64,000 bases of DNA from a virus. The notes beneath the pieces were generated by a model, which worked only from the letters and a program-made list of their open reading frames with translations, searched no databases and was not told the origin of the DNA. The stretch lies in the IMG/VR virus record IMGVR_UViG_3300028844_003294, positions 1-64,000 of that record, one strand, 5' to 3'. Shown here one piece after another: positions 24,901-57,915 of this stretch (its first letter is position 1; the number at the start of each line of letters is the position of its first letter). Position numbers and translations under genes: made by a program.

Positions 24901-27900
24901 GTACCAGCACCTTGCTCGTACCATTCGTATTTAACTTTGCTGGTATTCCACCATGTGGCACCAACTTGTTCTTTACCAAATTTGGTATATGCAGGATTAT
25001 ATACCACAGGGTCGTTTTCAGACTTGAATATTATTTCTTTATCAATAAACCCAGGTATAATTCCTTTAAATGGATCATATAAATTTAACTCAAATTCTTT
25101 TTGTGCGGTATCTTCGTCATATGTGAATACATCTTTAACAAATTTAATATCTGCTAATTTTTCCTGTTGTCTAATAACTGTATTGCTTTCCAAGTATGCC
25201 CAGCCACCTGTTGTTCCGTAACTGTCAATCCATGCATTACTAATATTTGCTAAATCTAATCCTGACTCAGTATCATGTCTCATGCTTTCTAATACTAATG
25301 GTTTAACATATTGTCTATCAACATCATCACGTGTAAATTGTATAGCATCGCCAGTGATTGTAGTAATATCGTATTTAAACATATCTTGAGACTGTGTTAT
25401 GTTACCCAAGTTCATATTAAAGTTCCAACCATTTTGCCATGGTTTGTTTCTTACGCCTCTTCCGGCTGCTCCATTAAATGGAAAACCATCAGCCATTTGT
25501 TGTACTGAAATTGCTGGGTTTACACCGGAACCATCGTTGTTTGTAACTTCAATTCCTGGTCCACAATAATATGTTCCTGGTAAAACACCTAGGATGTCTA
25601 GCAAACCTGGATTTAAATTATCATCAATTTCGATGCCCATTAGTGTTGGAGAACTTAATACTAACTCACCAATCATTGCACCATTAGGTACACCACCTCT
25701 ACCTAAACCACTATTACCGAGACCATCATCACCTAAGTTAGCATCACTTGGAATAATATTACCATCAGCATCTCTGTATACAACATCAGCCGCAAATAGA
25801 GGATTACCATTCTCATCTAATTCAGAGAATAAAGAAATATCATCTGCTAATTGTTGTTCAGGAGTTGTTGCATAAATTACTCCATTTGGTAAACCTAAGT
25901 CTGTTAAAGCATTACCTTTCTCTGAGCAACTTGGAATTTCTCTTGCTGTTAAGAATATTCTAGCACCAAATCCTGCGCCTTTGTTAGCGGCGTCTCCGTA
26001 TGCATTATCTATATGACCACTGCTACCAAGTATCTCACTATCTGGAGTTCCTGATTGTGGTCGTTTAATATCATACTCTAATGGTACACCACTATCCAAA
26101 TCACTTGGGAATATTTTATATATACCTCTAGTGATAATTTGTATATCTGTAATTTCACCATCTGGCCCAACGCCGTTTACAACAAATCTTGCAGGTTTTT
26201 CTACTGCTGGGTGTTCTACTTTAGTTTTTGCTGATACACTTGCATTTCTACCGGTACCAATTATTGTAATTGTTGGAGGATTATCCATGCTATAACCATC
26301 TCCTCCGGAGGCCAATGGAATTTTTGTAATTGCACCAGAACCATCAACTTCGATGCCACTATAATCAACTAGTGCGCCTGTTCCAGGTTCACCGGTTTGT
26401 CCAATTACAACTCGTATGCTGTCTTTAACATACCCAAATCCGCCATTGTTTACTGTTATTGATTGTAATTCACTAGACGGTAATCCAACTACAGGTGTAC
26501 CGCCCATAACTCTCAGTACATCACCTACAGCATATCCACTGCCTTTAGTTAAGCAAATACTTTGCTTATCATTGTTAGCCAATCTTTCTTCTGGTGTAAT
26601 TGTGTCAGTAGTAAATGATGCCACACTAGTACCAACAATAGTAGCATTGCCACTACCACTTGCTGTATTTGTAAGTGTTGTTGGTCCTTGCACAACTTCT
26701 TTGTTGAAACACATTTGTTGATCTTTTTGTAATGTGTAATCTAATACTTCTTTGTACACACCACCAGCACAACCATTTCTAACTACCATTGGGTCTGCGG
26801 TTTTGTTTCTAATGGTCAAACATTTATCGCCTAATCCATCTGGTGTTACATGTACTGTTACTGATGTTACTTGACTTCTAATTTCGTTTGCTATTGCATC
26901 TATACTGGTAGCACCGCTTAGTGTTACTGATGTGCCATTTATATAAAATGTATCACCTTGCCCTACTGATTTAGTTTGTCCACAAACTTTAATTCTAGGT
27001 TTAGGTGTACAAACCGGTATCTGACTTGTATTTGTAGTACCACCTGTAGGAGTATGTCCTGTTAGTCCAATATGATTTGTATTACCTTGTCCTTGGTTTC
27101 CTGGGTTGGTATTAGTAAGTTGTGCTTGTGGACCACTAATCAGTGTACCACTCCAAGCATTACCATTTATATCTACCCAACCCAATGTTGGGCTCCATCC
27201 AGCCGTGTTTGCATTATATGAAGGATAACCATTAGTTAGTCCTGCTTGATACTGAGTATTATAACTGAAAGTACCGGCACCTATACCTGCGATGTTTACG
27301 CCACTAAAGTTAAAGGTAGTGTTGACTCCGTTAAAACCTGAACCATAACCACCACCAATTTGTAAACCACCTGGTGGGATAAAGCCATTGCCCCAAGGAC
27401 CGGCTCCGTTTGCTATTACACCTGGATTTGCATTGTTACTAGGATTACCTACACTAGCCACACTACCTTGTAAAGGTACCCCATCGTCTGATGGATATTC
27501 TATTGCAAAATTGTATGCAGTACTTGTACTGCCATCTTTTTCTAATTTGATTGTTATGTATTGTCCGTTAGCAGGATAATATGTAAAACTTAACTTACCA
27601 TTTTCTTTCACAAAGCCGTTGCCGTGTGTGGTATAATCTTGTATACCACCACTAAATTGAGTGTTATTTGAACCAGTTCGTATTCTATTATACTCTGTTT
27701 TATCTGTATCAGTTAGTTGGCTTAATGTACCTGCTACACCTGTGCCTGCAAGAGTTCTACCTGTACTACCTGCTGTTGTGCCTTGATAAACAGTCATTTT
27801 GTCTTTAGCACTATACATGTCGAATAATATTTTAATAGGCCATCCTGCACCGTTGTTATCATCAGTAGCAAATTTAAATCTAGTTGTCTCTGTTACACCC

Positions 27901-30900
27901 CTACCTTTTGTGTTACTAATAAATTGTGTGACCATTTTTACAGGTGGTACCGGTGGCGTAGGTGGTACCGGTGGCGGAGGTGGACAAGGTGTATCATTTT
28001 GAGTAATATCTATGATAGGACTAAAATCAGCAAATGATGTACCATTAGTACCTGCTGACGCATAGTTACCACTACTACCTGGTGCCTGTATTGTATTGAC
28101 TACAGTAGTAGGCGGCGGAGGCGGATTATAAGTTGGTGACTGGGTCGGTGGTGTAGATGATCCTCCTCCGAATGTTAGTCCACCACCACTTAGCGGAACC
28201 GGAACCGGTGCGGATGGTCCTGAAGTAGTAACATTACCCGAGTTACCAGGATTTGGATCTACGAAACTATGCTGACCACCATTTAGTACTCTTTGAGCTA
28301 ATCCGGCATAGTTATAACTATTTCTTAATGTATGTTGTTTACCTTGCAGTTTTGGATTTATTGTTCCTGCAGGTACTTGACCTAATCCAGCAAAATTTTG
28401 TAATCCGGTTCGATTGGCGGCATTCAATGCCGCGGCTCTTGCCGCCGCCTTTAGTGCTGGTGTTATAAAAGGAATACTAATTTGTATAGAGCCACAAAAT
28501 GCTACTGCACCTTGTTTAATTTGTAATTGATAATTTATATCATCAACATACTGTTGTGAAGAATACATTGGGAAAGCAGTTGCAACTGGCATTCCATTTA
28601 TGAAAATCTTACCTTTATGTGTTGAGGACAGGTACGCATTTCCTTCTGGGTTGCCTACTGTGAGTTGTGCAGAATTACCATATTCTAAATATTGTTTTTC
28701 TGAGACTGCATTAGCACTAAATGTTATACTGTTATTTGCACTACTGTCAGCATTGCCGTCTAATATTACAGTTGTGCCATCTACAGAAACTACTTTAGTT
28801 CCTGAAGCAACATCTCCACCAGACACCGAAACAAATTTTTGTACAAAATCGTTTTCACTAGCAATCACAATAGAGTTGCCTGTTCCAGTAAAGGTTGTTG
28901 TATATGTTACAGGTACTGGATGATCGTATCCGTATCCTTGTACTAATAATGTATTTGCAGTAGGAACACCTTTTGCTCTCCAGGCCCAGTTATAGTATCC
29001 AGGCTCTGCATAACCAATGTTTACTACATGCTCGAGTATTGTATCTTGTCCTGCAGAATCTATTGTTAAATCATGATCTTCTGTAAATGTTACTGTTACA
29101 TAATTGTCTACAAGTGTTGCATTACCAAATCTATCTTCTGTGAATGTAATTGAAGAATTTGCACTACTATCAGCATTAGAAGATAATATAATATTTCCTC
29201 CTGCATCTATGTATAGTACTTTACAATTTGCCGCAACATTACCACCAGTTACCAACATACCATCTGTAATTGAACTGTTTGCTGTTGCTAATTGAATGTT
29301 AGCAGTATCTACACCTGTAAAAGTGCTTGTAATACTTAGAGGTGCAACATAATCGCCTGGTATAGAAATAGTGTTAGCAACACCATTTACTGTGATATCT
29401 TTGATTCTATGTACACCTTCGAACAGTCCAGCATTTTGTATTTTAACATCATCACCACGTGTTAGTGTTGTTGTATCAAAATCAGTTGTAACTATTAAAC
29501 CGTCTGTTTTACCTATTGTTAAATTTGCAGTTGATACATTACTACTTACTGTGGCATCTTCAATTGTAAATGTTGTTGTTGAAGATTCTGTTGTTGTGTA
29601 TATTACACTTTGGCTTACAAATGTAATATTAGCACCACTTGATATGTTTGCATTTTGTGAAAGTGTAATTGTTGTACCAGATATTTGATTGACCTTGGTA
29701 TTATTTTCTACACCAGTTCCAAGTACTGACATTCCATTTCTAATGTCTGTGTTAGCCTCAAGTAATGTTACTGTTTTACTATTAGTTACAGTACCCGATA
29801 CTTCAGAAATAACTGGTACACTAGTATTTGCTGTACTTGACTGTGTTCCGTTAGTTGTAAATGCAGTAACATTTAGGTTGCTTATCTCGTAATTATTTCC
29901 GTTTAAGTTGCCACCTGAAGTATCAACAAAGTTTACATATGAACCATTTGTTAGTCCAGAAAATTGATTACTAAATGAAACTGTGCCATCTACAGTTTCC
30001 TGTGTTGTTACTATCGAAATTTCAACAATGTTATTACCTACTATGTTTGCGTTTGCAACAATACCTTCATTGAATAAAGCATGTGGCTGAATATTTAAAA
30101 CATTACCACTAACATTAGGTTCTATTTTTTCTATACCAAGCACCATAGGTCTTGTGTAAGTGATATCTGTAACATCAAAAGAGTTTTTAACAACTTGCTC
30201 TTCGTTAAAGAATAATCCAACCGGTGTAGTCAGATCCATTATTGTATCGTCAAAGATTTTTTCACCGTCAGCATAACTCATTTTATCGTAGTATGCATTA
30301 TAAATATTTTTATCACGTTTAAATGCAACAACATTATCATAGTATTTGTTTATGTTGTTTGCAGTATTTTCTCTGTTTCCATCTGTAAATTGCATTAAAC
30401 TTTTGTTTGTAAAAAGTGATATAGATTGACTGTTTAAGTCGCCTTCCACGTATGCAACATTACAATTAGTATCAACTAGTTGATAAGCATTAAAATCGCT
30501 ATGCTCATCGATAGCGAAATGTATTAAATCATTTGCTTGTGGAATTTTACTTGCTTTTCTAGTTGCTCTATCGAATAATTGTTCAAAGTTTTGCAAGTCC
30601 ATTGCCTGATAATTTACATTGTATTTTGAAATATATCCTGCATTAGGTAATGGTGTATACTTACTGTCTACTATACCTAAGTGGCTTACACTAGACGTTG
30701 TTGGCCATAAGTCGTTAGTTGCCATATCAGTTGGTCTATGTATCATTCTAGTACCATCGTCAACGTCTATTAAAATTGTTGAATCTGTTTTAACATCTGG
30801 TGTAATTTCAAATGTTCTTATTTGCTTTAGTTTGGCCGCTAAGGCGTCATTTGCTGTGACTTTAATATTTAGAACACTACCGGGTAAATCACCTTGATAT

Positions 30901-33900
30901 GTATCCTCAAAATCTAGAGTACCATACTCGACAACTTCAATTACTGAATTCTCATTTAATTCACCACCTGGTAATTTTGACACATCATAGAATGTAATAA
31001 TATTATTACTACCTGACTCGCTTACAATATAACCTGCAACACTACTAGTTTCTAGTGCATCGTCTAATTTCTGTCCGTCAATGAAAACATCTAAATGCGG
31101 ATATATTCCGTTTATAACTGTTCTGTTATCAATATCAATTAAATTAGTATTTGATACTCCGTCACTGACTGATGTTGGTACAAAATTAAATGATATATTA
31201 CCTCCTGTTGTTCTACTGGTAGGTCTTATAGTTGTTCTACTACCTTCATCGAACACCCAATCATTGCCTGCTGAAGTTATGTTGCCGTCAACTGTTGCTA
31301 TAATATCACTTTGTGCAGTACTGTTAGCAGTTTCAAAACTATATCGTTGCCTTGGTTGATATCTTCTTTCTTCTAATAAGAACTTGTTTGTGATATCATC
31401 AACAATAGCACTATTGCCCTGTCCAGAAAGTTGAAAATCATTACCTTGTATTTCTAGCAAATAATTGGTTGATGTAGATGTTGTAATTTCAACTGCTCTT
31501 GCTACAATATTAGCATTAGTGTTTGCAGTACTGTTGATTGCATTTGCAACACCAGTAAGTGTTGTAACACCCGATAAATCAATAAATGTATTTGCATTAC
31601 CGCTAGGTGCAAAATGGTCTGTGATATGGATACCTGTTAAGGCATTTGCAAATGTACCTGAACCAGATACATAATCACTTGATATTGCATAAGGCTTACT
31701 AAAATATGTTGTAAGGTTTGCTGTAAGCAACTGTGCCGCAACTACTGTTACAGATGGGTTTATAGTATAGCCATAACCTTTTTCTGTAACTGTGACGTTG
31801 CTAATTGTTCCATCAGTGGATAAATTCACTATGGCTTCAGCAGTAGTACCTCCACCGTATGAGAAACTTCCTGGAATCTCTGCAGGTGGTGGTTCTATTT
31901 CAAGTATTGGTTTTGTATAGAATTTTGTATTTCTACTTAATACTTCTACATCATCAACAATACTAACTATATTTTCTGGGTATACAATTTGTACTAATGT
32001 TTTTTCACTTTTAATCTCGTCTTCATCAATTTTAACATCCAGTCTCTGTTTATTACCAGTGTCACCAAAATCACCAATTTTTAATGCCCATTGATCAAAT
32101 ATACTTACGTTACCAGGAATAAACACTTTGTCACTGTTTAACAAGATTTCTAAACTGTCTTTTGTACCTTTGTTTCTGATCATACCTTGATAGAAATCAA
32201 ACTGGTTATCATCTACTAATTCAAATTCTCTAAGATATTTTCTTTCTTGATAACCATATTGTCTTCTACTTGCATCATAAACTTGTTTTTCTACTGGCAT
32301 ATAACCTATTTCGTTATATCTGCCAATGTCACTTGCAAGTGTATCAAAGTTTGGTTTTAATCCATTGTCAGTGATTATGAAACCTTCACTTGATAATGTT
32401 CCGTTCCAATTAGCAGTTCTCTTGCCTTTAATTTTTAAACGTTTTTGTCTTTGATTAAATACTGGATCATAAATTGTATCGCCAAATTGCGATTTGTTGT
32501 TTACAAGCATACTATGTTCTAATTCATTAGTATGTAATGTAATACCATAAATTTGTACTTCTCTATCAATTGTTGCGATCGTAATAGAATTACTTTCTCT
32601 AACAATTTCACAATCCCGAGGAGAAACCATTTTTCCTTCTTGATCTAATATACTAAATTGTCCTTTATAAGATTCTTGAATTCGATTTATTCTACCTGTA
32701 GTAGTAGCAAACGATACTTTGTTTGCCATAGGACTAAGATTTAATGTATTACCTGTTGACCATTTACCAATGCTCCAGAATAAGAACTGCTTACCTGAAT
32801 ATAACCAATCGTTTATATCATTTATTTCTGTGCTAAATTCACCAAAATCAAATCCTATTGATTTTTGATATCTGCCTAAACTGGTTAAGAAATCAAATAA
32901 GTCATTTACATTATAATAAACAGTACCGTATTCTACTCTTTCAACATTACCAGTTCCATCTAGATAAAATGTTGCTTCTGCTCCGCCTACGTTTGGCAAT
33001 GCACTCATTCTTTGCCATACTGTTGTATCGGTCACTGCCGTACCTGCAGAAGCAAATGCTACTGCTCGATAATAATTGTAACCTGATTTAACTATGTTAC
33101 CTTCGTTGTATTGTTTAGTTGTATCGTAATTACTAAAGTTTGCAGGTTCGCCGCCTACTGATACTTCTGTTTTTCTGCCTTGTTTATCACTAGGAATAAT
33201 ATCAAAGTATCTTTTTAAACTGCTGTATCCAGAAACTTTATATCCATTATTTGAAACTTTTTCTATAAGCACACCTGTATAATTGTTTGTTGTTGATACA
33301 GGACCTTCATGGATATCAATTTGTAAATCTTCTTGAGGTAATATTAAACTTGAACTATTACCTGTTGTACTATATGTATCACTGAATACAGTCATTGTAT
33401 CTTTATCAATAAATCCAGCAAACTTATGTCCTAGTTTACCGTTGACAGATCTAAATGGTTTTGCAAATATAGATGTATTATTAAGGCCCTGGAATCTCAA
33501 ATAAGAGTCTATGAATTGTGTATAACCAGTGTTAGTACATAATGTTTTACCGTCTGCCTTTATGTCGCCGTGTACAATAGCATTTTTGACTTTATATCTT
33601 TTGTTTGTATTTTTATCAACTAATTGGTTGGTGTTTGCAGAAACTCGAATAAGTTTTTCCGGTTCTGCAAACACACTGGCAAACTTACCTGGCTTGGTAA
33701 GAAATAGTGATTCTATAATTGCAAATGGATAATATTCAGAAATTTTCCATGCATTCTCTACTGGAGCACCGTCACTAAATTTCCAATTGCTACTTGCTAA
33801 TGTTGAGTTAGCACTATATACTGTTGACTCTGAGTTGTCTAACGAATATGATAGGGTACCGTTTGTATTTAGAGTTTGTGTACCAATTAAATTGTTTGCT

Positions 33901-36900
33901 AAGTCTGGTGTATCTATAAACTTGCCACCAACTGTATAAGGATATGCTGGTTTGCTGTTTGCATCTATTGTTGCAACATAATAGTATGTTCCTGCAGGAT
34001 ATTCTGGTGTAACACCAAAACGTCCATTAAACTGATCAAGATCACCACTGCCTGGGTTATACGCATAATCTTCAATAAATTCACCTGTTGGTAAACCTGT
34101 TGCACCACTGGCTATATCAGATCTTACATCACTTCTTAGTTCGTAACTGCTTTCTATTCTTTTAATAGCACTACTGGCATTTGCACCATCAGTGTAGCCG
34201 TATGGACCATAAATTGGTAATCCGTCAAATGCCCATCCAACAATTGGTGAATGACTGTCAGTTGCCCAACTAGTCAATCCAACTGTTTGAGGACTAGGTT
34301 GTACATATCCGTAAATATTATTACTGTCTGGTGAACCACCAGCAGTATCTCTGTCAACATCATTTCTAAACATTGCATTGTAGTGCCAGTTACTACTATC
34401 TTCAAAGATAATACCTGTATTACTGTTTGTAATCATTGCACCGTTTACTGCTATACCTATTGCAGTATTGCTTGTTGATGTTGCATTTGCATAATCATTA
34501 TAATATGCTAAATTTCCTGTTGCTATACCTGTAGCAAATTGGAAACTGTAATTGAATTCTGAGTCTACAATTTCATTTGTATTATTTGTAGACGGGAATG
34601 TTCCAGTGTCGTGTCCTGGAATATTATTTGTTGTAACATTTATAAATGTGTTACCTGAATTATTGTATTCACTTATTGATAAACCGTCAGTAGCAATAAA
34701 TGTATTTGCATTTGCACTAGGTGTTCCTGTAACACTCTGTGACCAAGAAATACTTTTTGTTGTTGATGTAGTACTAATAATATTAGCAGGTGGTATTAGG
34801 TTGCCTTGTGCATCTACAGGTATTTCATATTTTAATCCAATTCTTCTAAAAGGATTTTTTCTAGTTTTATATCTATCATTTTCAATATTGGCTCTAGTGC
34901 CTTGTCTAATAATACCTTCCTCTAAATCTTTCCATAAGTCAGTGTTAGTTGAACCATAGTCTGTACCATACTGTTCTTCCCACCATGTTGGTTTTTTAGT
35001 GAAGCCTAGCATTTCCCATGGGTGTGTATGAGGTTTTTCTGTATCGTAACAACTTTCAAAAATACCTCTCCAATAAGCAGGTTTTACAGTATTGCTATTG
35101 TAATTCCATGTCCAAAAATCATCTTCTTTATAATATTCATTTGTAACAAAGTCTACTTCGTTTCTTGTAACAAATTTATTAAAACTTTCTCTTAAAATAT
35201 TATAAAAGTCGTTTCTTGAAAATCCTGTTGTTCTGAATCTACCTGGTCTAATGTCAAATACATTTAAGTCAGGATGTGATTCCTTATCTTTATAAACTTG
35301 TAATATTGTATTGTAAACTCTTCTTTCAAACTCTAATAATATTTCATCTTCTTTGTCGTTTACTGCTACATGCTTACTACCATCATGTCCAAGTACTACA
35401 TTTATTGGCTCATTGAAAGTAGTATCCTTAAATATTTCTGGTTTTGTTACAGGATACAGACCCATTGCACTTGGTGTGGGCGGACATTGAGCACTTTCTC
35501 TGTTTGTATTAAAGAATCTTGCTTTTATTGTACTACCTAACGATAAAGTATAATTATCAGTAAATGTTAAAGTAACAATGCTGTTATCACTGTTTATGCT
35601 ATAGTCAGTATCAATCAAAAGCATTTGATCTTTACCTTCGCTATCTGTTTCGTAAATGTAAACTACATTTTCTACTTTAGTCAAATCGCTATATCTAGAT
35701 AAGGCATATTCTTTTTGATTTACGTTATTGATTACAATAGTTTCTTCGTCGTATCTATCACCAATTGCTAACATGTAACTATAGTCAAATACTAGTTTGC
35801 CTGGATTGTATGCTATAACATTTTGTATTACAAGTTCTAATATATCGCTGTTTGTTAAACCAATTATATCGTTGCCATCAATGTAACGTTTAATCTCTTT
35901 TCTTAATCTGTTTTTATACTTAATATACTCTTCTGCATTATATCTTATTGCATCGATAATATTAAAGTTATCATTGCTAACTAGGAAAGCCGCAGTTTGC
36001 AAGTCATCGTCTGACTGTACAATTTTGTCTGCATATTTTATTTCTTTTGTTAGATTACTAAAGTTATTACTTCCAAGAGGCTCACCTTCAATGTGCTCTT
36101 GGTTGTTTATTAAATTTTTAAAATGTTCGATGTATTGTGGTTCACTGATTTCAGATATATCTACTTTATCAGTGTTCGAATCCCAACTTAGAGGTATTTC
36201 ATATCTACCAGTTCTGTTTTCACCTAATATATGCCCAGTACTTGTTTTTGTTTTAATATCAATTACATCATTTAATTTTAACTCAAAACTTGCAAACTGA
36301 ATAGCAGTCAATACACTATTATATGTGAACGCCTTAGTACGTTTACCATTGATATAAACTCTTATGTCATTGCTATCTGTGGGTGTTGCTGATATATTAT
36401 AAATTACAGTTTTTGCATCTACAAGATCTTGAGATATTTGATATCTATCTTCGACTACTTGTTCGAAAGGAGTGTTTTGTCCTCTCCACATAGTTCTATA
36501 TTCTATGTTACCGTTGCTTAATCTTTGCTTGTAATACAAGTATCCATTTATGTAAGAGTTTGTTGTGCCACCAAAGGGCACATAACTAATTACGTCAGAA
36601 CTTAAATTGTTGTTAAAAACAATTTCGCTGAAGTTATTAAAGTTTTTATACTCTAGAGGAAATCCTAAAACACTATCATTCTGTGTATTTGACGTTGCAT
36701 CTTTATAAGAAAATAATTTTGTTCCTTTAAAAGATGATTTTGGGTATACCAAATCATCATCGACAATATTTCTATTACCGTCATATGCTTTAAACAATAT
36801 AGGACTGTTTACCCTAGTTTTCTTTTGACCTAATATCCATTTTTTTCCATTCCAAAAATATTCTGTACCTTGATTTTGAGAACCAAACAGAATAGAAATA

Positions 36901-38537
36901 CTATTACCAACTTCAGGAACAAACGGTATAAAATTACTATCGCCGTCTACTGCACCTACAGGGTTATTGTCTGCTGGTTTTCTTTTAAGTATAACTCTAT
37001 CACCAAATGTAATGCTTTGCTGATCTGTAAGTGTTACATTTGCACTAGTTGTAATTATTTTAGAGCTAGTATCAATATCTTCAACTTGCACAGTAGTACT
37101 AATGCCATTGCCTGTAATAGTTGAATATAGATAAATGTCTGATATGTCGTCAACAATAAAGGTTGAACTATTTGATACACCACCTACAACTGTTTTAGTT
37201 GTTGATGCTTTTACAACATAAACATATTTTGCATTATCTTCTGTATCATCTGGTATTAAAACTAAATTTTCTTCTTTGATGCCCTGACTGTCAATTGGTG
37301 CTGATATTGGCCGGCCTTCTATTTCAGCCTTAGTATAACCTGCGGCAGATAAATCAGCATTAAAGTTTAGACCTAGATTACCAAAATTGTATACTTCTAT
37401 ATCTCTATCAAATTCTAAAATAGGTCTTTTTGCTCTGAATTCTTTACCTGGTAATTCAGAGCCCGAATCTATGAAATTGTTTTTATGATGCCAAAAGTTT
37501 ATTCTACTCCAAATATTTTTATCTTGTGCACCACGTTGCATAAGAATGTAATCTGGTGTTTCCTGAGTGTTACCACCATCCCATGGTTCATTGTCGAATC
37601 CATATAATCCATCGTTTATATAAACCAAGAAGCCGTCTGCTTCTGAAACGTAGCCTTCCCAAAAAGGATTACCGTTTAAGTCTATATCTTGTAATGAATT
37701 GACTTGTACTGTGGACTGCTCACCTTCTGCATCAAAGTAGTAATATAAACCTGTACTAGTATCAAGATAACCATGTGTTGTAATAATACTTTCTGATACT
37801 GCACCTTGAGGTATGTCGGTTAAAATTAAGTTAGATTCACCTGTTATTATTTCTTGATCCCATGGAGAAAAAGAAGGAGTTGAAAAACTTGCTGAAAAAT
37901 TTTGTTCCTTATTATGTAAAATAATACTGTCGCCAACACCTTCAACAATGTATCTATCGTCTTTGTATGTTTGAGGAATCACATAGTCACCTGCAAATTC
38001 CACCACTGCACCATTTTTAAATGTATAACCTGATGGATCAGTAAATGTTTTTTTACCAATAATATCTTTTAAAATGTTTATAGGTTGACTTGCTGTACCA
38101 CTAACTACTATTGCTTGTGGTCCTTCTGGACTCCAAAAATATTCTTGGAAATTTACAAATTTATCTTCATCAATGGGAGGTAACAAACTGTAAAAGTTTG
38201 AACTGAATAAATTGTTTTGGTTTTGTGTATCGACACCATAACTTTTTAAAACATTTAAAAAGTCATCGTAGAACATTAAATTAGTACTTAATCCTGTTAG
38301 TTGATCTACACTATTGACTACTGGTTCTAAACTATATTTTTCTCTGTTAGGTGTGCTCTGAGGAACATATACATCTGTATCTGGGTTATAGTCGTCGAAC
38401 TCTTTTCTTCCAATATATGCAGACAAGTTTTCAACATTTGCTTTGCTGAATAACTGTTCTACTGTACTTTCGAAAAAGTTTTTAACAGTAGTTGTCTGAA
38501 TATTCGTTGGTAAGTCTTTATACTTTTTATCAGCCAT
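21903..38537 (-). CDS. Giant 5,544 aa baseplate/tail structural protein
   Basis: This single uninterrupted frame takes up a quarter of the window. It follows gp25 and gp6, the place of gp7/gp8 in T4, so a baseplate wedge or peripheral role is inferred. Visible parts, in order: an N-terminal module with FQEYFWSPEGPQ; a YHYH-type domain around residues 1300-1540 (HSPIVGWAFDGLPIYGPYGY); copies of a valine-rich repeat ending S-x-x-S-I-T-F (near residues 500, 2960, 3115, 3265); a glycine/proline-rich linker near 3350-3850 including a run of prolines; and a C-terminal part with ERIEYTGVDTANNKLLGVVR. No transmembrane or protease motif is evident. It is several times longer than T4 gp7 (about 1,030 aa). 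Confidence 0.75.
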   Translation of the reverse strand: MADKKYKDLPTNIQTTTVKNFFESTVEQLFSKANVENLSAYIGRKEFDDYNPDTDVYVPQSTPNREKYSLEPVVNSVDQLTGLSTNLMFYDDFLNVLKSYGVDTQNQNNLFSSNFYSLLPPIDEDKFVNFQEYFWSPEGPQAIVVSGTASQPINILKDIIGKKTFTDPSGYTFKNGAVVEFAGDYVIPQTYKDDRYIVEGVGDSIILHNKEQNFSASFSTPSFSPWDQEIITGESNLILTDIPQGAVSESIITTHGYLDTSTGLYYYFDAEGEQSTVQVNSLQDIDLNGNPFWEGYVSEADGFLVYINDGLYGFDNEPWDGGNTQETPDYILMQRGAQDKNIWSRINFWHHKNNFIDSGSELPGKEFRAKRPILEFDRDIEVYNFGNLGLNFNADLSAAGYTKAEIEGRPISAPIDSQGIKEENLVLIPDDTEDNAKYVYVVKASTTKTVVGGVSNSSTFIVDDISDIYLYSTITGNGISTTVQVEDIDTSSKIITTSANVTLTDQQSITFGDRVILKRKPADNNPVGAVDGDSNFIPFVPEVGNSISILFGSQNQGTEYFWNGKKWILGQKKTRVNSPILFKAYDGNRNIVDDDLVYPKSSFKGTKLFSYKDATSNTQNDSVLGFPLEYKNFNNFSEIVFNNNLSSDVISYVPFGGTTNSYINGYLYYKQRLSNGNIEYRTMWRGQNTPFEQVVEDRYQISQDLVDAKTVIYNISATPTDSNDIRVYINGKRTKAFTYNSVLTAIQFASFELKLNDVIDIKTKTSTGHILGENRTGRYEIPLSWDSNTDKVDISEISEPQYIEHFKNLINNQEHIEGEPLGSNNFSNLTKEIKYADKIVQSDDDLQTAAFLVSNDNFNIIDAIRYNAEEYIKYKNRLRKEIKRYIDGNDIIGLTNSDILELVIQNVIAYNPGKLVFDYSYMLAIGDRYDEETIVINNVNQKEYALSRYSDLTKVENVVYIYETDSEGKDQMLLIDTDYSINSDNSIVTLTFTDNYTLSLGSTIKARFFNTNRESAQCPPTPSAMGLYPVTKPEIFKDTTFNEPINVVLGHDGSKHVAVNDKEDEILLEFERRVYNTILQVYKDKESHPDLNVFDIRPGRFRTTGFSRNDFYNILRESFNKFVTRNEVDFVTNEYYKEDDFWTWNYNSNTVKPAYWRGIFESCYDTEKPHTHPWEMLGFTKKPTWWEEQYGTDYGSTNTDLWKDLEEGIIRQGTRANIENDRYKTRKNPFRRIGLKYEIPVDAQGNLIPPANIISTTSTTKSISWSQSVTGTPSANANTFIATDGLSISEYNNSGNTFINVTTNNIPGHDTGTFPSTNNTNEIVDSEFNYSFQFATGIATGNLAYYNDYANATSTSNTAIGIAVNGAMITNSNTGIIFEDSSNWHYNAMFRNDVDRDTAGGSPDSNNIYGYVQPSPQTVGLTSWATDSHSPIVGWAFDGLPIYGPYGYTDGANASSAIKRIESSYELRSDVRSDIASGATGLPTGEFIEDYAYNPGSGDLDQFNGRFGVTPEYPAGTYYYVATIDANSKPAYPYTVGGKFIDTPDLANNLIGTQTLNTNGTLSYSLDNSESTVYSANSTLASSNWKFSDGAPVENAWKISEYYPFAIIESLFLTKPGKFASVFAEPEKLIRVSANTNQLVDKNTNKRYKVKNAIVHGDIKADGKTLCTNTGYTQFIDSYLRFQGLNNTSIFAKPFRSVNGKLGHKFAGFIDKDTMTVFSDTYSTTGNSSSLILPQEDLQIDIHEGPVSTTNNYTGVLIEKVSNNGYKVSGYSSLKRYFDIIPSDKQGRKTEVSVGGEPANFSNYDTTKQYNEGNIVKSGYNYYRAVAFASAGTAVTDTTVWQRMSALPNVGGAEATFYLDGTGNVERVEYGTVYYNVNDLFDFLTSLGRYQKSIGFDFGEFSTEINDINDWLYSGKQFLFWSIGKWSTGNTLNLSPMANKVSFATTTGRINRIQESYKGQFSILDQEGKMVSPRDCEIVRESNSITIATIDREVQIYGITLHTNELEHSMLVNNKSQFGDTIYDPVFNQRQKRLKIKGKRTANWNGTLSSEGFIITDNGLKPNFDTLASDIGRYNEIGYMPVEKQVYDASRRQYGYQERKYLREFELVDDNQFDFYQGMIRNKGTKDSLEILLNSDKVFIPGNVSIFDQWALKIGDFGDTGNKQRLDVKIDEDEIKSEKTLVQIVYPENIVSIVDDVEVLSRNTKFYTKPILEIEPPPAEIPGSFSYGGGTTAEAIVNLSTDGTISNVTVTEKGYGYTINPSVTVVAAQLLTANLTTYFSKPYAISSDYVSGSGTFANALTGIHITDHFAPSGNANTFIDLSGVTTLTGVANAINSTANTNANIVARAVEITTSTSTNYLLEIQGNDFQLSGQGNSAIVDDITNKFLLEERRYQPRQRYSFETANSTAQSDIIATVDGNITSAGNDWVFDEGSRTTIRPTSRTTGGNISFNFVPTSVSDGVSNTNLIDIDNRTVINGIYPHLDVFIDGQKLDDALETSSVAGYIVSESGSNNIITFYDVSKLPGGELNENSVIEVVEYGTLDFEDTYQGDLPGSVLNIKVTANDALAAKLKQIRTFEITPDVKTDSTILIDVDDGTRMIHRPTDMATNDLWPTTSSVSHLGIVDSKYTPLPNAGYISKYNVNYQAMDLQNFEQLFDRATRKASKIPQANDLIHFAIDEHSDFNAYQLVDTNCNVAYVEGDLNSQSISLFTNKSLMQFTDGNRENTANNINKYYDNVVAFKRDKNIYNAYYDKMSYADGEKIFDDTIMDLTTPVGLFFNEEQVVKNSFDVTDITYTRPMVLGIEKIEPNVSGNVLNIQPHALFNEGIVANANIVGNNIVEISIVTTQETVDGTVSFSNQFSGLTNGSYVNFVDTSGGNLNGNNYEISNLNVTAFTTNGTQSSTANTSVPVISEVSGTVTNSKTVTLLEANTDIRNGMSVLGTGVENNTKVNQISGTTITLSQNANISSGANITFVSQSVIYTTTESSTTTFTIEDATVSSNVSTANLTIGKTDGLIVTTDFDTTTLTRGDDVKIQNAGLFEGVHRIKDITVNGVANTISIPGDYVAPLSITSTFTGVDTANIQLATANSSITDGMLVTGGNVAANCKVLYIDAGGNIILSSNADSSANSSITFTEDRFGNATLVDNYVTVTFTEDHDLTIDSAGQDTILEHVVNIGYAEPGYYNWAWRAKGVPTANTLLVQGYGYDHPVPVTYTTTFTGTGNSIVIASENDFVQKFVSVSGGDVASGTKVVSVDGTTVILDGNADSSANNSITFSANAVSEKQYLEYGNSAQLTVGNPEGNAYLSSTHKGKIFINGMPVATAFPMYSSQQYVDDINYQLQIKQGAVAFCGSIQISIPFITPALKAAARAAALNAANRTGLQNFAGLGQVPAGTINPKLQGKQHTLRNSYNYAGLAQRVLNGGQHSFVDPNPGNSGNVTTSGPSAPVPVPLSGGGLTFGGGSSTPPTQSPTYNPPPPPTTVVNTIQAPGSSGNYASAGTNGTSFADFSPIIDITQNDTPCPPPPPVPPTPPVPPVKMVTQFISNTKGRGVTETTRFKFATDDNNGAGWPIKILFDMYSAKDKMTVYQGTTAGSTGRTLAGTGVAGTLSQLTDTDKTEYNRIRTGSNNTQFSGGIQDYTTHGNGFVKENGKLSFTYYPANGQYITIKLEKDGSTSTAYNFAIEYPSDDGVPLQGSVASVGNPSNNANPGVIANGAGPWGNGFIPPGGLQIGGGYGSGFNGVNTTFNFSGVNIAGIGAGTFSYNTQYQAGLTNGYPSYNANTAGWSPTLGWVDINGNAWSGTLISGPQAQLTNTNPGNQGQGNTNHIGLTGHTPTGGTTNTSQIPVCTPKPRIKVCGQTKSVGQGDTFYINGTSVTLSGATSIDAIANEIRSQVTSVTVHVTPDGLGDKCLTIRNKTADPMVVRNGCAGGVYKEVLDYTLQKDQQMCFNKEVVQGPTTLTNTASGSGNATIVGTSVASFTTDTITPEERLANNDKQSICLTKGSGYAVGDVLRVMGGTPVVGLPSSELQSITVNNGGFGYVKDSIRVVIGQTGEPGTGALVDYSGIEVDGSGAITKIPLASGGDGYSMDNPPTITIIGTGRNASVSAKTKVEHPAVEKPARFVVNGVGPDGEITDIQIITRGIYKIFPSDLDSGVPLEYDIKRPQSGTPDSEILGSSGHIDNAYGDAANKGAGFGARIFLTAREIPSCSEKGNALTDLGLPNGVIYATTPEQQLADDISLFSELDENGNPLFAADVVYRDADGNIIPSDANLGDDGLGNSGLGRGGVPNGAMIGELVLSSPTLMGIEIDDNLNPGLLDILGVLPGTYYCGPGIEVTNNDGSGVNPAISVQQMADGFPFNGAAGRGVRNKPWQNGWNFNMNLGNITQSQDMFKYDITTITGDAIQFTRDDVDRQYVKPLVLESMRHDTESGLDLANISNAWIDSYGTTGGWAYLESNTVIRQQEKLADIKFVKDVFTYDEDTAQKEFELNLYDPFKGIIPGFIDKEIIFKSENDPVVYNPAYTKFGKEQVGATWWNTSKVKYEWYEQGAGTYDIYGYNNEERIRNWGSMFPNSKIEIVEWIESLLTPEEFNLQNISNGVQALTPSDGSAPNFILETRANDKGKLTDYYYFWVEGKTTVDAKAFAHYGRERSTVELVNLLSNPEGQRLPYFAMVSPEAMGINMLGDLIKTENSILSLNYTRRPEKHSQQHTSWQLASEGDKNSSIPSELSVKLIDSLAGINGLGEDVPAKGLSEAERYGSSYRPRQTMFKYIKEARKQMFNSLNSIFKELKMDSTFDDWRNSLPTTLNYLDTVNWFEELRTDKVTNSKIYYNSDYKPLRKVATTKQLELLKNVLDRSVIQVQSNSNSKYSLYEYSKSTDTFKLIAIEDETVEWNEKVYKEQQSNPIAEEIRSVLLALYNNVFVGSSRVYWNRFFFDMVKYAYSEQTELNWAFKTTYLNIVKEETDLVPLKGFKVDNFDKAIDYFNEVKPYSSKIQNYSDIKKPATEIVSGTSTDFDRPPYFDSETIDVRVLDDSVSADANILATDSTYAGFVSSNAPIRSVDTKIVFDRVKADLFENSSGMQTQTFVASTDIDALSLNFVPSEADRIVVKRNDEVVPTISTNLNSSIGIAPDGNIITSPGGNISTTNYTFDSANNVIVLNKTGNSEFQTVSAGDVIEVSVIDGFDPTKETINVSIAKNIVSIMQNSNANISNTQLSWTASDRLFKFDPEIISQFTHDMESTFGEGVLTNATVMTNVNTITSMVDSGNLDNTFSLVKTKIGGDFQGRQLDASVFTDIVPGTHPTTYYTNTRGFDFYSWDSEVWDREVDVENFIGILNEETQGNVNYRVDNETVYGFDAVTFLKSRHGPDRPEELAVVQPLETLVINVHTSNADIETLPGVSTSKSIRYRMFMDLFGKTDFYRQTLTGLTTVSANVNIWENEISVADVSVLPDGNESNKGIIWIGAERIEYTGVDTANNKLLGVVRGTRGTTAQPLIESGAQIFNGEESQNIALQGARDPQIANWLGQDGVSITDTTNSPTTDTIIGFIQNV

Positions 38538-54193: not shown

Positions 54194-54712
54194 TTAGAAA
54201 GACTGTAAATAAGTTATAGTGTCAGAATAACTTTTTCTTAAGTTTAAACTGAATAATTTAGTTAGTTCATTTATATTACTATGATCACAACCATGTTTTT
54301 TAGTAACATCTAAAATCATTATTTGTTGAGGGTTTATATATTTGTTATGTGAGGGATCTTCATGAGTTATGTATACAGGAAAATCATTTAGATTAAACAA
54401 CACATTACATTTTCTAGTAAATGGGTTTCTCCAACCTGTTAAAAAATCTTCATGAAGTTGTACTATTTGATTAGGATTTACATTTTCAAATCCTGCACTA
54501 TGTTCGGGTAATACTTCTATAGGACTTACTGCAAGTTTTATTTTATCTGCACAATTTAAATCTTTAACCATTAAAATATCTTGCGTCATGTCAGGCGTGT
54601 CTGCTCTATGCATAAAATACTTTTTATCATCTGGTATAGTAGTAGATATTTCTTCTTCTAAAGACAATAACAAATCTACATCATAATCAAAATTTAATAC
54701 AGTACTAAACAT
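54194..54712 (-). CDS. 2-oxoglutarate/Fe(II) oxygenase-like protein 1
   Basis: A 172 aa protein with VQLHEDFLTGW (H87-x-D89), a strand CNVLFNLNDFPVYI, then MILDVTKKHGCDHS with a distal H140 and SLNLRK (R159). H-x-D...H...R in a beta-rich context is the iron and 2-oxoglutarate site of non-haem dioxygenases, especially aspartyl/asparaginyl hydroxylase-like proteins. It overlaps and probably descends from the same ancestor as the next gene. AAGGAG lies 8 nt before the ATG. The substrate could be a protein or nucleotide. It converges on the structured RNA candidate. Confidence 0.55.
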   Translation of the reverse strand: MFSTVLNFDYDVDLLLSLEEEISTTIPDDKKYFMHRADTPDMTQDILMVKDLNCADKIKLAVSPIEVLPEHSAGFENVNPNQIVQLHEDFLTGWRNPFTRKCNVLFNLNDFPVYITHEDPSHNKYINPQQIMILDVTKKHGCDHSNINELTKLFSLNLRKSYSDTITYLQSF

Positions 54713-55145
54713 TAAACAACTCCTTTGTTTTATCGTAATTAAGTTTTGTATTAAGTGTTAAAAATTTGTAATCATAATCATGTCCATTTGTAGAGCCATG
54801 CATTTTTTGTGTGTTTATTAAAAACATCTCGCCAGGTGCAAATGTGTGTTTTTTAGATTCACCGTTATTGCTGTGAAAAATTACAGCATCGGATTCTGAC
54901 ACATTTATTAGTAAATTAGATTTTCTTATGTGATCAGTGTGTGGATCAAGTGTGCTGTTTGCTGGTATAGTTTCTGCACCAATAAGATAATCGTCGTCTA
55001 GATTAAATTCTTCGACAAATTCTTGTGGTAATATATCCTTTAATCTACCAACAGGAAAAACACACTGAACTATGTTATTATATTCAAATTCCCAACGTCC
55101 GTGACCTTGTAATTGCTGTAGGTTAGTAAAAATATCCTTGTACAT
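54705..55145 (-). CDS. 2-oxoglutarate/Fe(II) oxygenase-like protein 2
   Basis: A 146 aa protein with LDPHTDHIRKSNLLINVS (H69-x-D71 and a following basic residue) and FAPGEMFLINTQKMHGSTN (distal H116), the order of metal ligands in small cupin-type hydroxylases. It is shorter than typical enzymes (about 200-250 aa). Two ATGs are possible: 55151 and 55145. I use 55145, which leaves 7 nt to the CATAAATA element; with 55151 the promoter would touch the start. It overlaps the downstream gene by 8 nt. Confidence 0.6.
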   Translation of the reverse strand: MYKDIFTNLQQLQGHGRWEFEYNNIVQCVFPVGRLKDILPQEFVEEFNLDDDYLIGAETIPANSTLDPHTDHIRKSNLLINVSESDAVIFHSNNGESKKHTFAPGEMFLINTQKMHGSTNGHDYDYKFLTLNTKLNYDKTKELFNV

Positions 55146-55151
55146 TTGCAT

Positions 55152-55191: not shown

Positions 55192-55219
55192 TTGACTTTT
55201 CACACTATTTTAGTATAAT
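55192..55219 (+). promoter_or_regulatory. Sigma70-like promoter
   Basis: TTGACT (55192-55197), a 16-nt spacer and TATAAT (55214-55219), 28 nt before the SWIM gene ATG with AGGAG between. It shares the TTGACTTT -35 region with the promoters at 43398 and 49572. Confidence 0.8.
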
Positions 55220-55247
55220 AGTATGTATTGTTAGGAGTAACAGAAAC

Positions 55248-55556
55248 ATGAAAATAACGGTATTACAAGAAGTAACAGATTGGCCTTATAAGGGTGTGTA
55301 TCACGTGAATGGCTCTAACGAGTTAGTGGCATATCAAGCCAGTTTAAAGGCACCAGAAAAGGTGTTTAAGAACCCAATTAAGCAATTTTCTAAATCTCAT
55401 AGAAAGTTTGAAACTATTAGACAGTATGAGATAGAAAACAATGACCCTAATGTAATTGAGGTTATTGGATCAAATGGCAATGTTTACACTATCAGAGATG
55501 GTAAGTGTAGTTGCCCAGGTTACACATACAGAGGAAACTGTAAACATGTTAAATAA
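55248..55556 (+). CDS. Small SWIM zinc-finger protein
   Basis: A 102 aa protein ending in GKCSCPGYTYRGNCKHVK, the C-x-C-x(n)-C-x-H pattern of SWIM domains, which bind zinc and usually contact DNA or protein. The N-terminal part (ITVLQEVTDWPYKGVYHVNG) is a small beta-rich region. The ATG at 55248 is chosen for AGGAG upstream; an in-frame start at 55146 would lie before the promoter. The stop overlaps the lipoprotein start by 11 nt, so the two are co-translated. Confidence 0.75.
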   Translation: MKITVLQEVTDWPYKGVYHVNGSNELVAYQASLKAPEKVFKNPIKQFSKSHRKFETIRQYEIENNDPNVIEVIGSNGNVYTIRDGKCSCPGYTYRGNCKHVK

Positions 55557-57915
55557 AATTGTAAAAAATGTTTTGGATTTTGGCGTAATTATTGCAATAG
55601 GTATTGTACTTACATCTTGTGCTAGTGGAGGAGGTAGTGCCGGTGTTGCCATTGAACCTTCTTACACACCACCCCCAACAACAACCACTACCCCAGATGA
55701 TAAAAGACATCAGTTTGAATCATTTTCTGATACATTTACACAATCAGCAAGTTCACTAGGTTACAACAAAGTAACTTATCAAGTAGGTGAGTTTAACGAT
55801 ACACAATGGGTAAATGGAAAATATACTGTAGAAGATTTTTCATTTTTACAAGTTGTTATAGATGGTAATCATCCTGGTAAAGATTTAAACAATCCTGACA
55901 GTGATGAGTATTCTGCAGGTGGTAATTGGATGACCAATGCCAGTTTAGTCATTGAAAATGATGTCAATCTAGATGGTAATAGTGACTTTATTATTTACAT
56001 GCAAACATTTGGTGACAGGAACACATTACCAGGTATGAGAATGTTGCAATTTGTAAATGATGGCAATGGACATTTTCAATTAGATTGTAGTGTTTTTGAA
56101 AACAATGTTTGTCCTATTGTGTTTGGCCAAGGTTCTACTATGAACAATATGGGTTGGTACCACAATGAAGATGCTCCTGTACAAGATTATAACTCAGGTG
56201 TTGCTCATCAATATGATTTGAATGGTGATGGTAACAAAGACATTTTTAATGTCAGTCAGTTATGGCTAACAGACAATGGTAAATTTGTTGATGCACACGA
56301 TAACCTACCTGACTTTATGTTTGAAAACCTAAATGCCGACGGTGTTGATGTTGGTATTTTTGTTCATGACCATGCAGTAGGTGATTTAAATGGTGACGGT
56401 TACAATGATATATTCATGCCTAACACTACACCTATAAGCACACACAACAACGGCTACAAGTTTTTTATGCTAAACGATGGCACAGGTAACTTTAAAGATG
56501 TTAGTTTTAAAGTAGGGCATTCAGCCTACTTTGCTACATCTACAACTATTGCAGATTTTGACAACGATGGATTTGGTGATATTGCATTAGGTTGGAGTGC
56601 TTCTGCTTATAGAGACTTAGGCGGTAATAGTGTTGGTGGGATATATTGGGGCAATACTGATATGGATTACACCAGAGACTATACAGCATTACCTCCGGGT
56701 TATTATGAGAATAATATTGCATATGATATGCAAGTGATAGACTCAAATAATGACGGACTGTTAGACATTGTTATTGCTAACACAAATGCTGACCCTTATT
56801 ATCAAGGTCATGTTTTACAATTGATAATCAATAATGGAAACAGAGATTTTAGTCAATTTTCATTTTTGGACGACGGTGCTACTACAAGTGATTTAGGTGC
56901 AGGACATATTTATGTTTTAGATTTCGACCATGATGGAGATATGGATATTTTTGTAGGTCCTGGACAAGACTCTTATGTACTTTACAATAACGATGGCGAC
57001 TGGAGTTGTAAAAATTGTGAATTTGCCAGACCTGATAATGGTGCAGTAATGAGTTTGTTATTTCCTGTAGAAGTTGATGGCATGTATGAGTACGACTTTA
57101 TTGGCATTGATATTATGAACATGAGTGATACACAGACTGTGAGTAACTTTTACATTAGTTTAGATCCTCCAGCACAATTACAAGAAATGCGTAATGAACT
57201 GTTTGACAAATCCATCGATTATGCCAAGGCAGTTTTTAATAACAAAACTATGTTTCATAATATTAAAAATACTTCATTGTCAAATAGTGTATTTTATGTA
57301 GACAATACACATAATAGTATTGCAGGTTATTCACATAACTTTGACAACTTTGGTATTACACTTGGTCAAACCAATGAAGGCGGATTGTTTTATGTAGATA
57401 GACAGCACGGTACATACCATTATGGTATTGGTTACTTTACTAACAGCATTGATGCACTCAGTTTTGGTAATTGGTATGGCACTGGTTCTGCTGTATTAGA
57501 TTTTGACACATTTAATGCGTATGCAGAAAAGTTTTTACCTTTGTCAACAAATATATTTGTAACTTCAGGTGTAGCATTATATCAGACAGACGTAGCAGGT
57601 TTTGTAGAAGAAAATAGTCAATACAATATTACTGTACAAGATTTTACCATGAATGATTTAGAGATGTACACAGACATTACTGCTGTTTTACCTTCTCAAT
57701 ACGGTACTACTTTGCTTAGTGCAGGAGTAAGTTCTCATTACAGTTTAGGTACAACTGACATTACTTGGGATGGTGGCTTGGTATCTAAATTCAAGCAAGA
57801 CGATCAAGTTGCTAGAGCAACAATCAGTCATACTTATAAAATGTTTTATGCTAAAGCAACGTTTAGCTCTGTGGATAGCGATACATTTGAAGTAGGATTT
57901 AACTTACAGTTTTAA
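55546..57915 (+). CDS. Large FG-GAP/VCBS-repeat lipoprotein with barrel-like C-terminus
   Basis: A 789 aa exported protein. The N-terminus MLNKIVKNVLDFGVIIAIGI runs into LTSC, a lipobox with C25 as the lipid-modified residue. A threonine/proline linker follows. The middle carries several calcium-binding D-x-N/D-x-D-G repeats (NLDGNSDF, DLNGDGNKDIF, DLNGDGYNDIF, DFDNDGFGDIA, DSNNDGLLDIV, DFDHDGDMDIF) as in FG-GAP/VCBS beta-propellers. The last about 250 residues alternate aromatic and polar residues and end FEVGFNLQF, like outer-membrane beta-barrel domains with terminal F. It is likely placed in the host outer membrane. Early expression behind a sigma70-like promoter suggests an action on the living host, for example blocking other phages; this is inference. 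Confidence 0.75.
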   Translation: MLNKIVKNVLDFGVIIAIGIVLTSCASGGGSAGVAIEPSYTPPPTTTTTPDDKRHQFESFSDTFTQSASSLGYNKVTYQVGEFNDTQWVNGKYTVEDFSFLQVVIDGNHPGKDLNNPDSDEYSAGGNWMTNASLVIENDVNLDGNSDFIIYMQTFGDRNTLPGMRMLQFVNDGNGHFQLDCSVFENNVCPIVFGQGSTMNNMGWYHNEDAPVQDYNSGVAHQYDLNGDGNKDIFNVSQLWLTDNGKFVDAHDNLPDFMFENLNADGVDVGIFVHDHAVGDLNGDGYNDIFMPNTTPISTHNNGYKFFMLNDGTGNFKDVSFKVGHSAYFATSTTIADFDNDGFGDIALGWSASAYRDLGGNSVGGIYWGNTDMDYTRDYTALPPGYYENNIAYDMQVIDSNNDGLLDIVIANTNADPYYQGHVLQLIINNGNRDFSQFSFLDDGATTSDLGAGHIYVLDFDHDGDMDIFVGPGQDSYVLYNNDGDWSCKNCEFARPDNGAVMSLLFPVEVDGMYEYDFIGIDIMNMSDTQTVSNFYISLDPPAQLQEMRNELFDKSIDYAKAVFNNKTMFHNIKNTSLSNSVFYVDNTHNSIAGYSHNFDNFGITLGQTNEGGLFYVDRQHGTYHYGIGYFTNSIDALSFGNWYGTGSAVLDFDTFNAYAEKFLPLSTNIFVTSGVALYQTDVAGFVEENSQYNITVQDFTMNDLEMYTDITAVLPSQYGTTLLSAGVSSHYSLGTTDITWDGGLVSKFKQDDQVARATISHTYKMFYAKATFSSVDSDTFEVGFNLQF

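What the first reader, a model, noticed from the sequence alone, without database searches (positions are those of the whole stretch)
55192..57915. Early-expressed FG-GAP lipoprotein with outer-membrane barrel-like end, coupled to a SWIM protein
A lipobox (LTSC, C25), at least six calcium-binding D-x-D-G repeats and a C-terminus ending in FNLQF are rare for a phage protein. It follows a strong sigma70-like promoter and overlaps the SWIM gene. A surface-displayed protein made early may exclude other phages, mask receptors or alter host adhesion.
Basis: partly seen in the sequence, partly recalled or inferred. Interest (0 to 1): 0.75.

Follow-up and report, generated by a model that had tools for sequence, protein, structure and literature searches.

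The report
Phage-encoded self-exporting surface lipoprotein
A large marine virus of bacteria carries a gene for a lipid-anchored protein that most likely inserts a barrel in its host's outer membrane and displays a calcium-binding propeller outside the infected cell; SAR86 ocean bacteria carry the same kind of gene, and one such bacterium and one such virus have exchanged it.

Summary
The gene starts at ATG 55546 (789 aa), with a lipobox (LTSC, C25), six D-x-[DN]-x-D-G-x-x-D motifs, an integrin-like FG-GAP propeller, and a C-terminal barrel modelled confidently (pLDDT 87.6, pTM 0.80). The model has a helix and 12 strands and matches autotransporter translocators best (NalP Z 22.6, EspP 22.5, EstA 21.0). 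So it is built like a lipidated type Va autotransporter with a propeller passenger. The autotransporter sequence family PF03797 is not detectable, so I do not file it there. It is not a one-off: about 40 viral contigs carry it at one conserved site in PA5oct-related jumbo myoviruses. Full-length bacterial relatives were found in 10 of 199 sampled SAR86-order genomes. One SAR86 chromosomal gene is 74% identical to one phage's gene, with DNA similarity limited to the gene and its ribosome site. That phage keeps a relic of its former signal peptide, so the gene was swapped in place. Early expression is supported indirectly. The SWIM link is only shared gene order: other SWIM genes have other neighbours. 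Likeliest role: early display on the infected cell, blocking further phage adsorption. The role is inferred; the architecture is well supported.

The parts
55192..55219 (+). sigma70-type promoter-like site TTGACT-16-TATAAT
   Evidence: 11 of 12; 11-12 of 12 within about 340-400 nt upstream of the lipoprotein start in L010, L012, L030, L033, L045, L046, L182, L187
55248..55556 (+). SWIM zinc-finger protein, 102 aa; its 3' end contains the start codon of the lipoprotein gene
   Evidence: Pfam SWIM E 3.9e-4; CxC...CxH invariant in 15 relatives; over 500 viral loci encode relatives
55546..57915 (+). the lipoprotein-autotransporter-like gene, 789 aa
55546..55620 (+). lipoprotein signal peptide and lipobox LTSC, lipidated Cys25, Ala at +2
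   Evidence: sequence; Cys25 invariant in all 28 aligned relatives
55711..57165 (+). FG-GAP (integrin-type) beta-propeller passenger, about residues 56-540
   Evidence: Pfam FG-GAP_3 in 28 of 28 relatives; integrin alpha-V chains E 3e-8
55960..56946 (+). six D-x-[DN]-x-D-G-x-x-D calcium-type motifs (starting 55960, 56215, 56383, 56554, 56740, 56920)
   Evidence: conserved in phage and SAR86 copies
57169..57273 (+). helices before the barrel (residues 542-565 and 568-576); the first corresponds to the pore helix of autotransporters
   Evidence: AlphaFold2 model; aligned ranges to EspP, EstA and NalP include it wholly or partly
57286..57912 (+). 12-stranded beta-barrel, residues 581-789, ending FNLQF
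   Evidence: AlphaFold2 pLDDT 87.6, pTM 0.80 for residues 527-789; VIA-align Z 22.6 to NalP 1uyn

Best explanation
It is a phage-encoded, lipidated, autotransporter-like outer-membrane protein. After infection the host RNA polymerase transcribes SWIM and this gene from the sigma70-type promoter, and translation is probably coupled through overlapping stop and start codons. The product is exported by Sec, lipidated at Cys25 and delivered to the outer membrane. The C-terminal 12-stranded barrel is inserted by BAM, and the calcium-binding propeller ends up outside the cell, held by both the lipid and the barrel. Its likeliest use is to change the surface of the infected SAR86-type cell so that further phages cannot adsorb, or so that progeny do not stick to debris. 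It would do so by occupying or imitating a surface ligand that the host's own homologue also handles. Shown by computation: the architecture and the shared host-phage family. Inferred: transcription timing, topology and the role. I put the architecture (lipoprotein, propeller, autotransporter-like barrel) at about 0.9; the score below is for the whole statement including the role.
For: Lipobox Cys invariant in 28 relatives. Propeller by Pfam and by integrin matches. Barrel model at pLDDT 87.6 with the nine best structural matches all type Va translocators, pore helix included. sigma70-type promoter conserved in several relatives, and late-type box absent in front. Strong purifying selection on the propeller, dN/dS 0.05-0.13 against 0.13-0.20 in the barrel, as expected if the propeller is the working part. 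Host homologues in SAR86 and a recent exchange. The slot next to SWIM holds small single-TM proteins in several phages that lack this gene. Phage outer-membrane lipoproteins made early for exclusion are known, e.g. T5 Llp (PMC9586334), and lipid anchoring of autotransporters is known (NalP, SphB1, AlpA, CapA; PMC9289746).
Against: No experiment. The only full-length AlphaFold2 model, with 5 aligned sequences, was poor (pLDDT 33.9), so the propeller rests on sequence profiles alone. No sequence similarity of the barrel to PF03797 was detectable. Strong purifying selection also fits an adhesin, or a host-function role without any exclusion. Some phages keep only the lipid-anchored propeller, so display cannot always depend on the barrel. 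No host receptor is known.
Confidence: 0.45

Rival explanations
1. Surface adhesin or aggregation factor: the displayed propeller makes infected cells bind particles, glycans or neighbouring cells, which helps the phage spread or feeds the infected cell; exclusion is not involved.
For: Integrin-like propellers bind ligands (general knowledge). Autotransporters are commonly adhesins (PMC9289746). The SAR86 copy in L063 lies next to glycosyltransferase and UDP-sugar dehydrogenase-like genes. Purifying selection.
Against: A lytic jumbo phage gains little from adhesion of a cell about to lyse; no carbohydrate-binding module was found beyond the propeller.
Confidence: 0.25
2. Auxiliary copy of a normal SAR86 surface function (for example uptake or envelope maintenance) that the phage supplies to keep the host working during infection.
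For: Shared family with SAR86 chromosomes; in-place exchange with a chromosome-like allele in L015.
Against: Only 10 of 199 sampled SAR86-order genomes carry the long form, so it is not a core function that a phage would need to sustain.
Confidence: 0.15
3. Virion component: a structural or adsorption protein of the particle.
For: It lies between recombination genes and a T4-type baseplate gene.
Against: Lipoprotein signal and outer-membrane barrel; no convincing match to any PHROGs family; no late-type promoter box upstream; chromosomal bacterial homologues.
Confidence: 0.05

Closest known systems
Lipidated type Va autotransporters (NalP, SphB1, AlpA, CapA)
   Same: Lipoprotein signal, passenger, pore helix, 12-stranded C-terminal barrel; the top structural match is the NalP translocator (Z 22.6)
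   Different: Passenger is an FG-GAP propeller, not a subtilase or beta-helix; no detectable PF03797 sequence signature; encoded by a jumbo phage
SAR86 chromosomal FG-GAP lipoproteins (L062, L063, L149-L156)
   Same: Full-length homologues in the same domain order; L063 is 74% identical to the phage L015 protein
   Different: No SWIM gene was found upstream of the three checked; all but L063 form a clade separate from the phage copies
'Autotransporter beta-domain' proteins of uncultured Caudovirales (e.g. A0A6J5KUW0)
   Same: Predicted phage proteins with a similar barrel (Foldseek E 2.8e-7)
   Different: Annotated by domain only; relationship beyond the barrel fold not tested; no functional description found in the papers searched
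T5 Llp superinfection-exclusion lipoprotein
   Same: Phage-encoded outer-membrane lipoprotein; exclusion proteins are typically made early (PMC9586334)
   Different: Llp is small and periplasmic; this protein is about 790 aa with a barrel and a passenger expected outside

Membership tests
Type Va autotransporter | C-terminal 12-stranded outer-membrane beta-barrel | tested here: met
   AlphaFold2 pLDDT 87.6, 12 strands; Z 17.5-22.6 to NalP, EspP, EstA, Hbp, AIDA-I, AaaA, BrkA over 194-246 residues. Predicted model, not a solved structure
Type Va autotransporter | alpha-helix linking passenger and barrel through the pore | tested here: met
   Helix 542-565 in the model; the alignments to EspP, EstA and NalP reach into it
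Type Va autotransporter | Translocator sequence conservation of PF03797 | tested here: not met
   Not listed for any of 26-28 members, even at E up to 10; hhalign against SAR86 PF03797 barrels gives probability 0.8% (that comparison profile was shallow). I therefore call it autotransporter-like, not a filed member
Type Va autotransporter | Passenger exported to the cell surface | not testable with these tools
   Needs localisation experiments
Lipoprotein | Lipobox with invariant Cys after a short hydrophobic signal | tested here: met
   LTSC at 22-25; Cys invariant in 28 aligned sequences. No signal-peptide predictor was available
FG-GAP / integrin-type propeller | Repeated FG-GAP motifs with calcium-type D-x-D-x-D-G loops | tested here: met
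   Pfam FG-GAP_3 1.6e-15 and FG-GAP 5.6e-9; six motifs; integrin alpha-V E 3e-8
Superinfection-exclusion lipoprotein | Expression blocks adsorption or DNA entry of related phages | not testable with these tools
   Inference only

The most novel reading that the evidence does not exclude
A lineage of jumbo phages of SAR86 bacteria uses an autotransporter-like, lipid-anchored protein to export an integrin-like propeller to the surface of the infected cell for superinfection exclusion. The gene is exchanged with host chromosomal alleles by in-place replacement next to a conserved SWIM gene, and the barrel has been lost in some lineages.
Probability: 0.35. Interest if true: 0.75.

Novelty: new variant of a known kind. 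Interest (0 to 1): 0.6.

Why it matters
If right, it adds a self-exporting surface protein to the ways a lytic phage can remodel its host's outside, and a passenger type (FG-GAP propeller) that is not mentioned in the autotransporter review read here. It also gives a concrete gene link between PA5oct-related marine jumbo myoviruses and SAR86, a group for which no virus had been isolated as of 2017 (PMC5332604), and a clean case of allele exchange between a phage and a bacterial chromosome.

Tried and rejected
Full-length AlphaFold2 with 5 sequences: uninformative (pLDDT 33.9); superseded for the C-terminal region by a 26-sequence alignment. DUF4292 match to the barrel: below cut-off and in 1 of 26 relatives, treated as chance. 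Homology to PF03797 by profile comparison: not detected. The PDB sequence search with the barrel profile found nothing. A specific SWIM-lipoprotein partnership: rejected, because in 34 of 74 SWIM loci the neighbour is something else (peptide deformylase, DUF932, SnoaL-like, small TM proteins). Simple one-way host-to-phage origin of the whole family: not supported, because ten bacterial copies form their own clade and L063 sits among phage sequences. T4 late box TATAAATA (exact): only three copies in the window, none just upstream of a late gene start; a GATAAATA variant is. Literature searches for a phage FG-GAP autotransporter found nothing relevant.

Full report
What was claimed and whether it is there. 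The finding describes a lipoprotein with FG-GAP repeats and a barrel-like end, preceded by a promoter and overlapping a SWIM gene. All of this is in the sequence. The ORF list starts at TTG 55456, but the start that overlaps the SWIM stop, ATG 55546, gives a signal peptide MLNKIVKNVLDFGVIIAIGIVLTSC and a 789-residue protein. The promoter-like site TTGACT-16-TATAAT is at 55192-55219. The protein has six D-x-[DN]-x-D-G-x-x-D motifs against 0.01 expected in shuffles, and Pfam FG-GAP_3 at 1.6e-15.

Where it sits. The window is part of a 72,152-base virus record. Around the gene are a gp55-like late sigma factor, SbcD- and SbcC-like genes, a SegE-like GIY-YIG endonuclease, a T4-type baseplate gene, a long protein at the tape-measure position (no PHROGs match) and a portal-like gene. 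The SbcC-like protein is closest (52%) to PA5oct-type jumbo phages. Related loci lie in contigs of up to 250 and 340 kb, so the source is probably a marine jumbo myovirus.

Relatives. No annotated phage isolate in the collection has it. Environmental virus contigs do: 12, then 44 and 41 loci in successive overlapping searches, the full-length ones down to about 32% identity. The gene order SWIM then lipoprotein is kept in the phage copies examined, with the lipoprotein ATG usually inside the 3' end of the SWIM gene. The start overlap is therefore a conserved arrangement, consistent with translational coupling.

What SWIM means. A search with SWIM itself found over 500 viral loci. Of 74 with a readable neighbour, 40 have this lipoprotein family and 34 have something else: small single-TM proteins, a peptide deformylase, DUF932, a SnoaL-like protein. 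SWIM marks a site that takes different genes; it is not a dedicated partner.

Fold. The propeller belongs to the FG-GAP family in all 28 relatives scanned and its profile matches integrin alpha-V chains at 3e-8. A first full-length model from five sequences failed. The C-terminal 263 residues, modelled from 26 sequences, gave pLDDT 87.6 and pTM 0.80, with a helix followed by 12 strands. Against solved structures the nine best VIA-align matches are all autotransporter translocators, NalP first (Z 22.6, 225 residues, 3.1 A), and the alignments reach into the helix that lies in the autotransporter pore. Foldseek agrees. By sequence, PF03797 is not detectable in any member, and a profile comparison with genuine SAR86 PF03797 barrels fails. 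I therefore say it is built like a lipidated type Va autotransporter and do not file it as a PF03797 member. Lipidated autotransporters are known (NalP, SphB1, AlpA, CapA; PMC9289746); that review mentions neither propellers nor bacteriophages.

Host link. The genome collection gave three long bacterial matches: a SAR86 single-cell genome (L063), a gammaproteobacterial MAG (L062) and an uncultured bacterium (L064). Within the order of L063, 10 of 199 sampled genomes, including L063 and L062, have a long homologue; many others have a shorter barrel-less FG-GAP lipoprotein. In 369 genomes sampled across the class, the only matches at E 1e-30 were two genomes already seen in that order. L063 is on a 218-kb contig among guaA, guaB, fumarase and other housekeeping genes, with no phage genes seen nearby. 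SAR86 as host is therefore likely but inferred from gene sharing.

Exchange. L063 and phage L015 proteins are 74% identical, far above any other phage-bacterium pair compared. Their DNA similarity (78%) runs from about 16 nt before the start codon to about 30 nt past the stop codon and no further. Just upstream, L015 keeps a 27-codon ORF at the usual SWIM-coupled ATG whose peptide resembles the signal peptides of sister phages (0 of 500 shuffles as good) and whose surrounding DNA matches theirs at 84-96%. The simplest reading is that an allele with its own ribosome site replaced the native gene in L015 behind its old signal peptide. In the tree the other ten bacterial copies form one clade (100/100), and the L015-L063 pair lies among phage sequences. 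Only 1 of 8 genomes of the L063 genus has the gene. So phage-to-bacterium transfer earlier in that lineage is also plausible, and the overall direction is open.

Timing. The site is one of three 11-of-12 promoter-like sites in 64 kb; the second precedes the late sigma factor gene and the third lies inside a gene on the other strand. Eight relatives have an 11-12 of 12 site at the matching place; others have one further upstream or none found. A GATAAATA box lies 24-29 nt before two late-type genes and not before SWIM. This favours early expression by host polymerase but does not prove it.

Selection. dN/dS in pairwise comparisons with four relatives is 0.05-0.13 for the propeller and 0.13-0.20 for the barrel. 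The outside part is the most constrained, which argues against rapid masking-type variation and for binding of a conserved ligand. In the window-L012 pair the C-terminal part of the propeller has a much lower dS (0.46) than the barrel (1.31), a sign of recombination between phages.

Mechanism. Shown by computation: lipobox, propeller, barrel with pore helix, overlapping starts, conserved site, shared family with SAR86. Inferred: Sec export, lipidation, BAM insertion, display outside, early timing, and the role. The role I find likeliest is exclusion of further phages or avoidance of debris binding. The reasons are the early-type promoter, the presence of membrane proteins in the same slot in several phages that lack this gene, and the precedent of outer-membrane exclusion lipoproteins such as T5 Llp (PMC9586334). 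Adhesion is the main rival.

Noticed in passing
L048, L049/L051 (in a 340-kb contig), L262, L299 against barrel-bearing relatives: Phage copies without the barrel have C-G-G-G-G after the lipid Cys; all barrel-bearing copies have C-A or C-S (38:0 against 2:23 in phage and bacterial copies together, not corrected for relatedness, one copy cut by a contig end left out). The +2 residue may track export route.
   Followed up: partly
L015:9936-10019: Relic of the native phage signal peptide in front of a swapped-in allele.
   Followed up: yes
window 21903-38537, minus strand: A 5,544-aa ORF with a YHYH domain (E 8e-36) in its N-terminal half.
   Followed up: no
window 54194-55151, minus strand: Two adjacent small proteins weakly similar to each other (23%, E 9e-5) with an HxD...H-like pattern, perhaps diverged 2OG-Fe(II) oxygenase-like duplicates.
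   Followed up: no
L277, L283, L290, L294, L295 (downstream of SWIM): The same slot next to SWIM holds a peptide deformylase-like gene in other phages (Pep_deformylase E 6e-36, tested for L290 only).
   Followed up: partly
L157-L176: Many SAR86-order genomes carry a shorter (about 610 aa) barrel-less FG-GAP lipoprotein family, mostly with CGGGG after the lipobox.
   Followed up: partly
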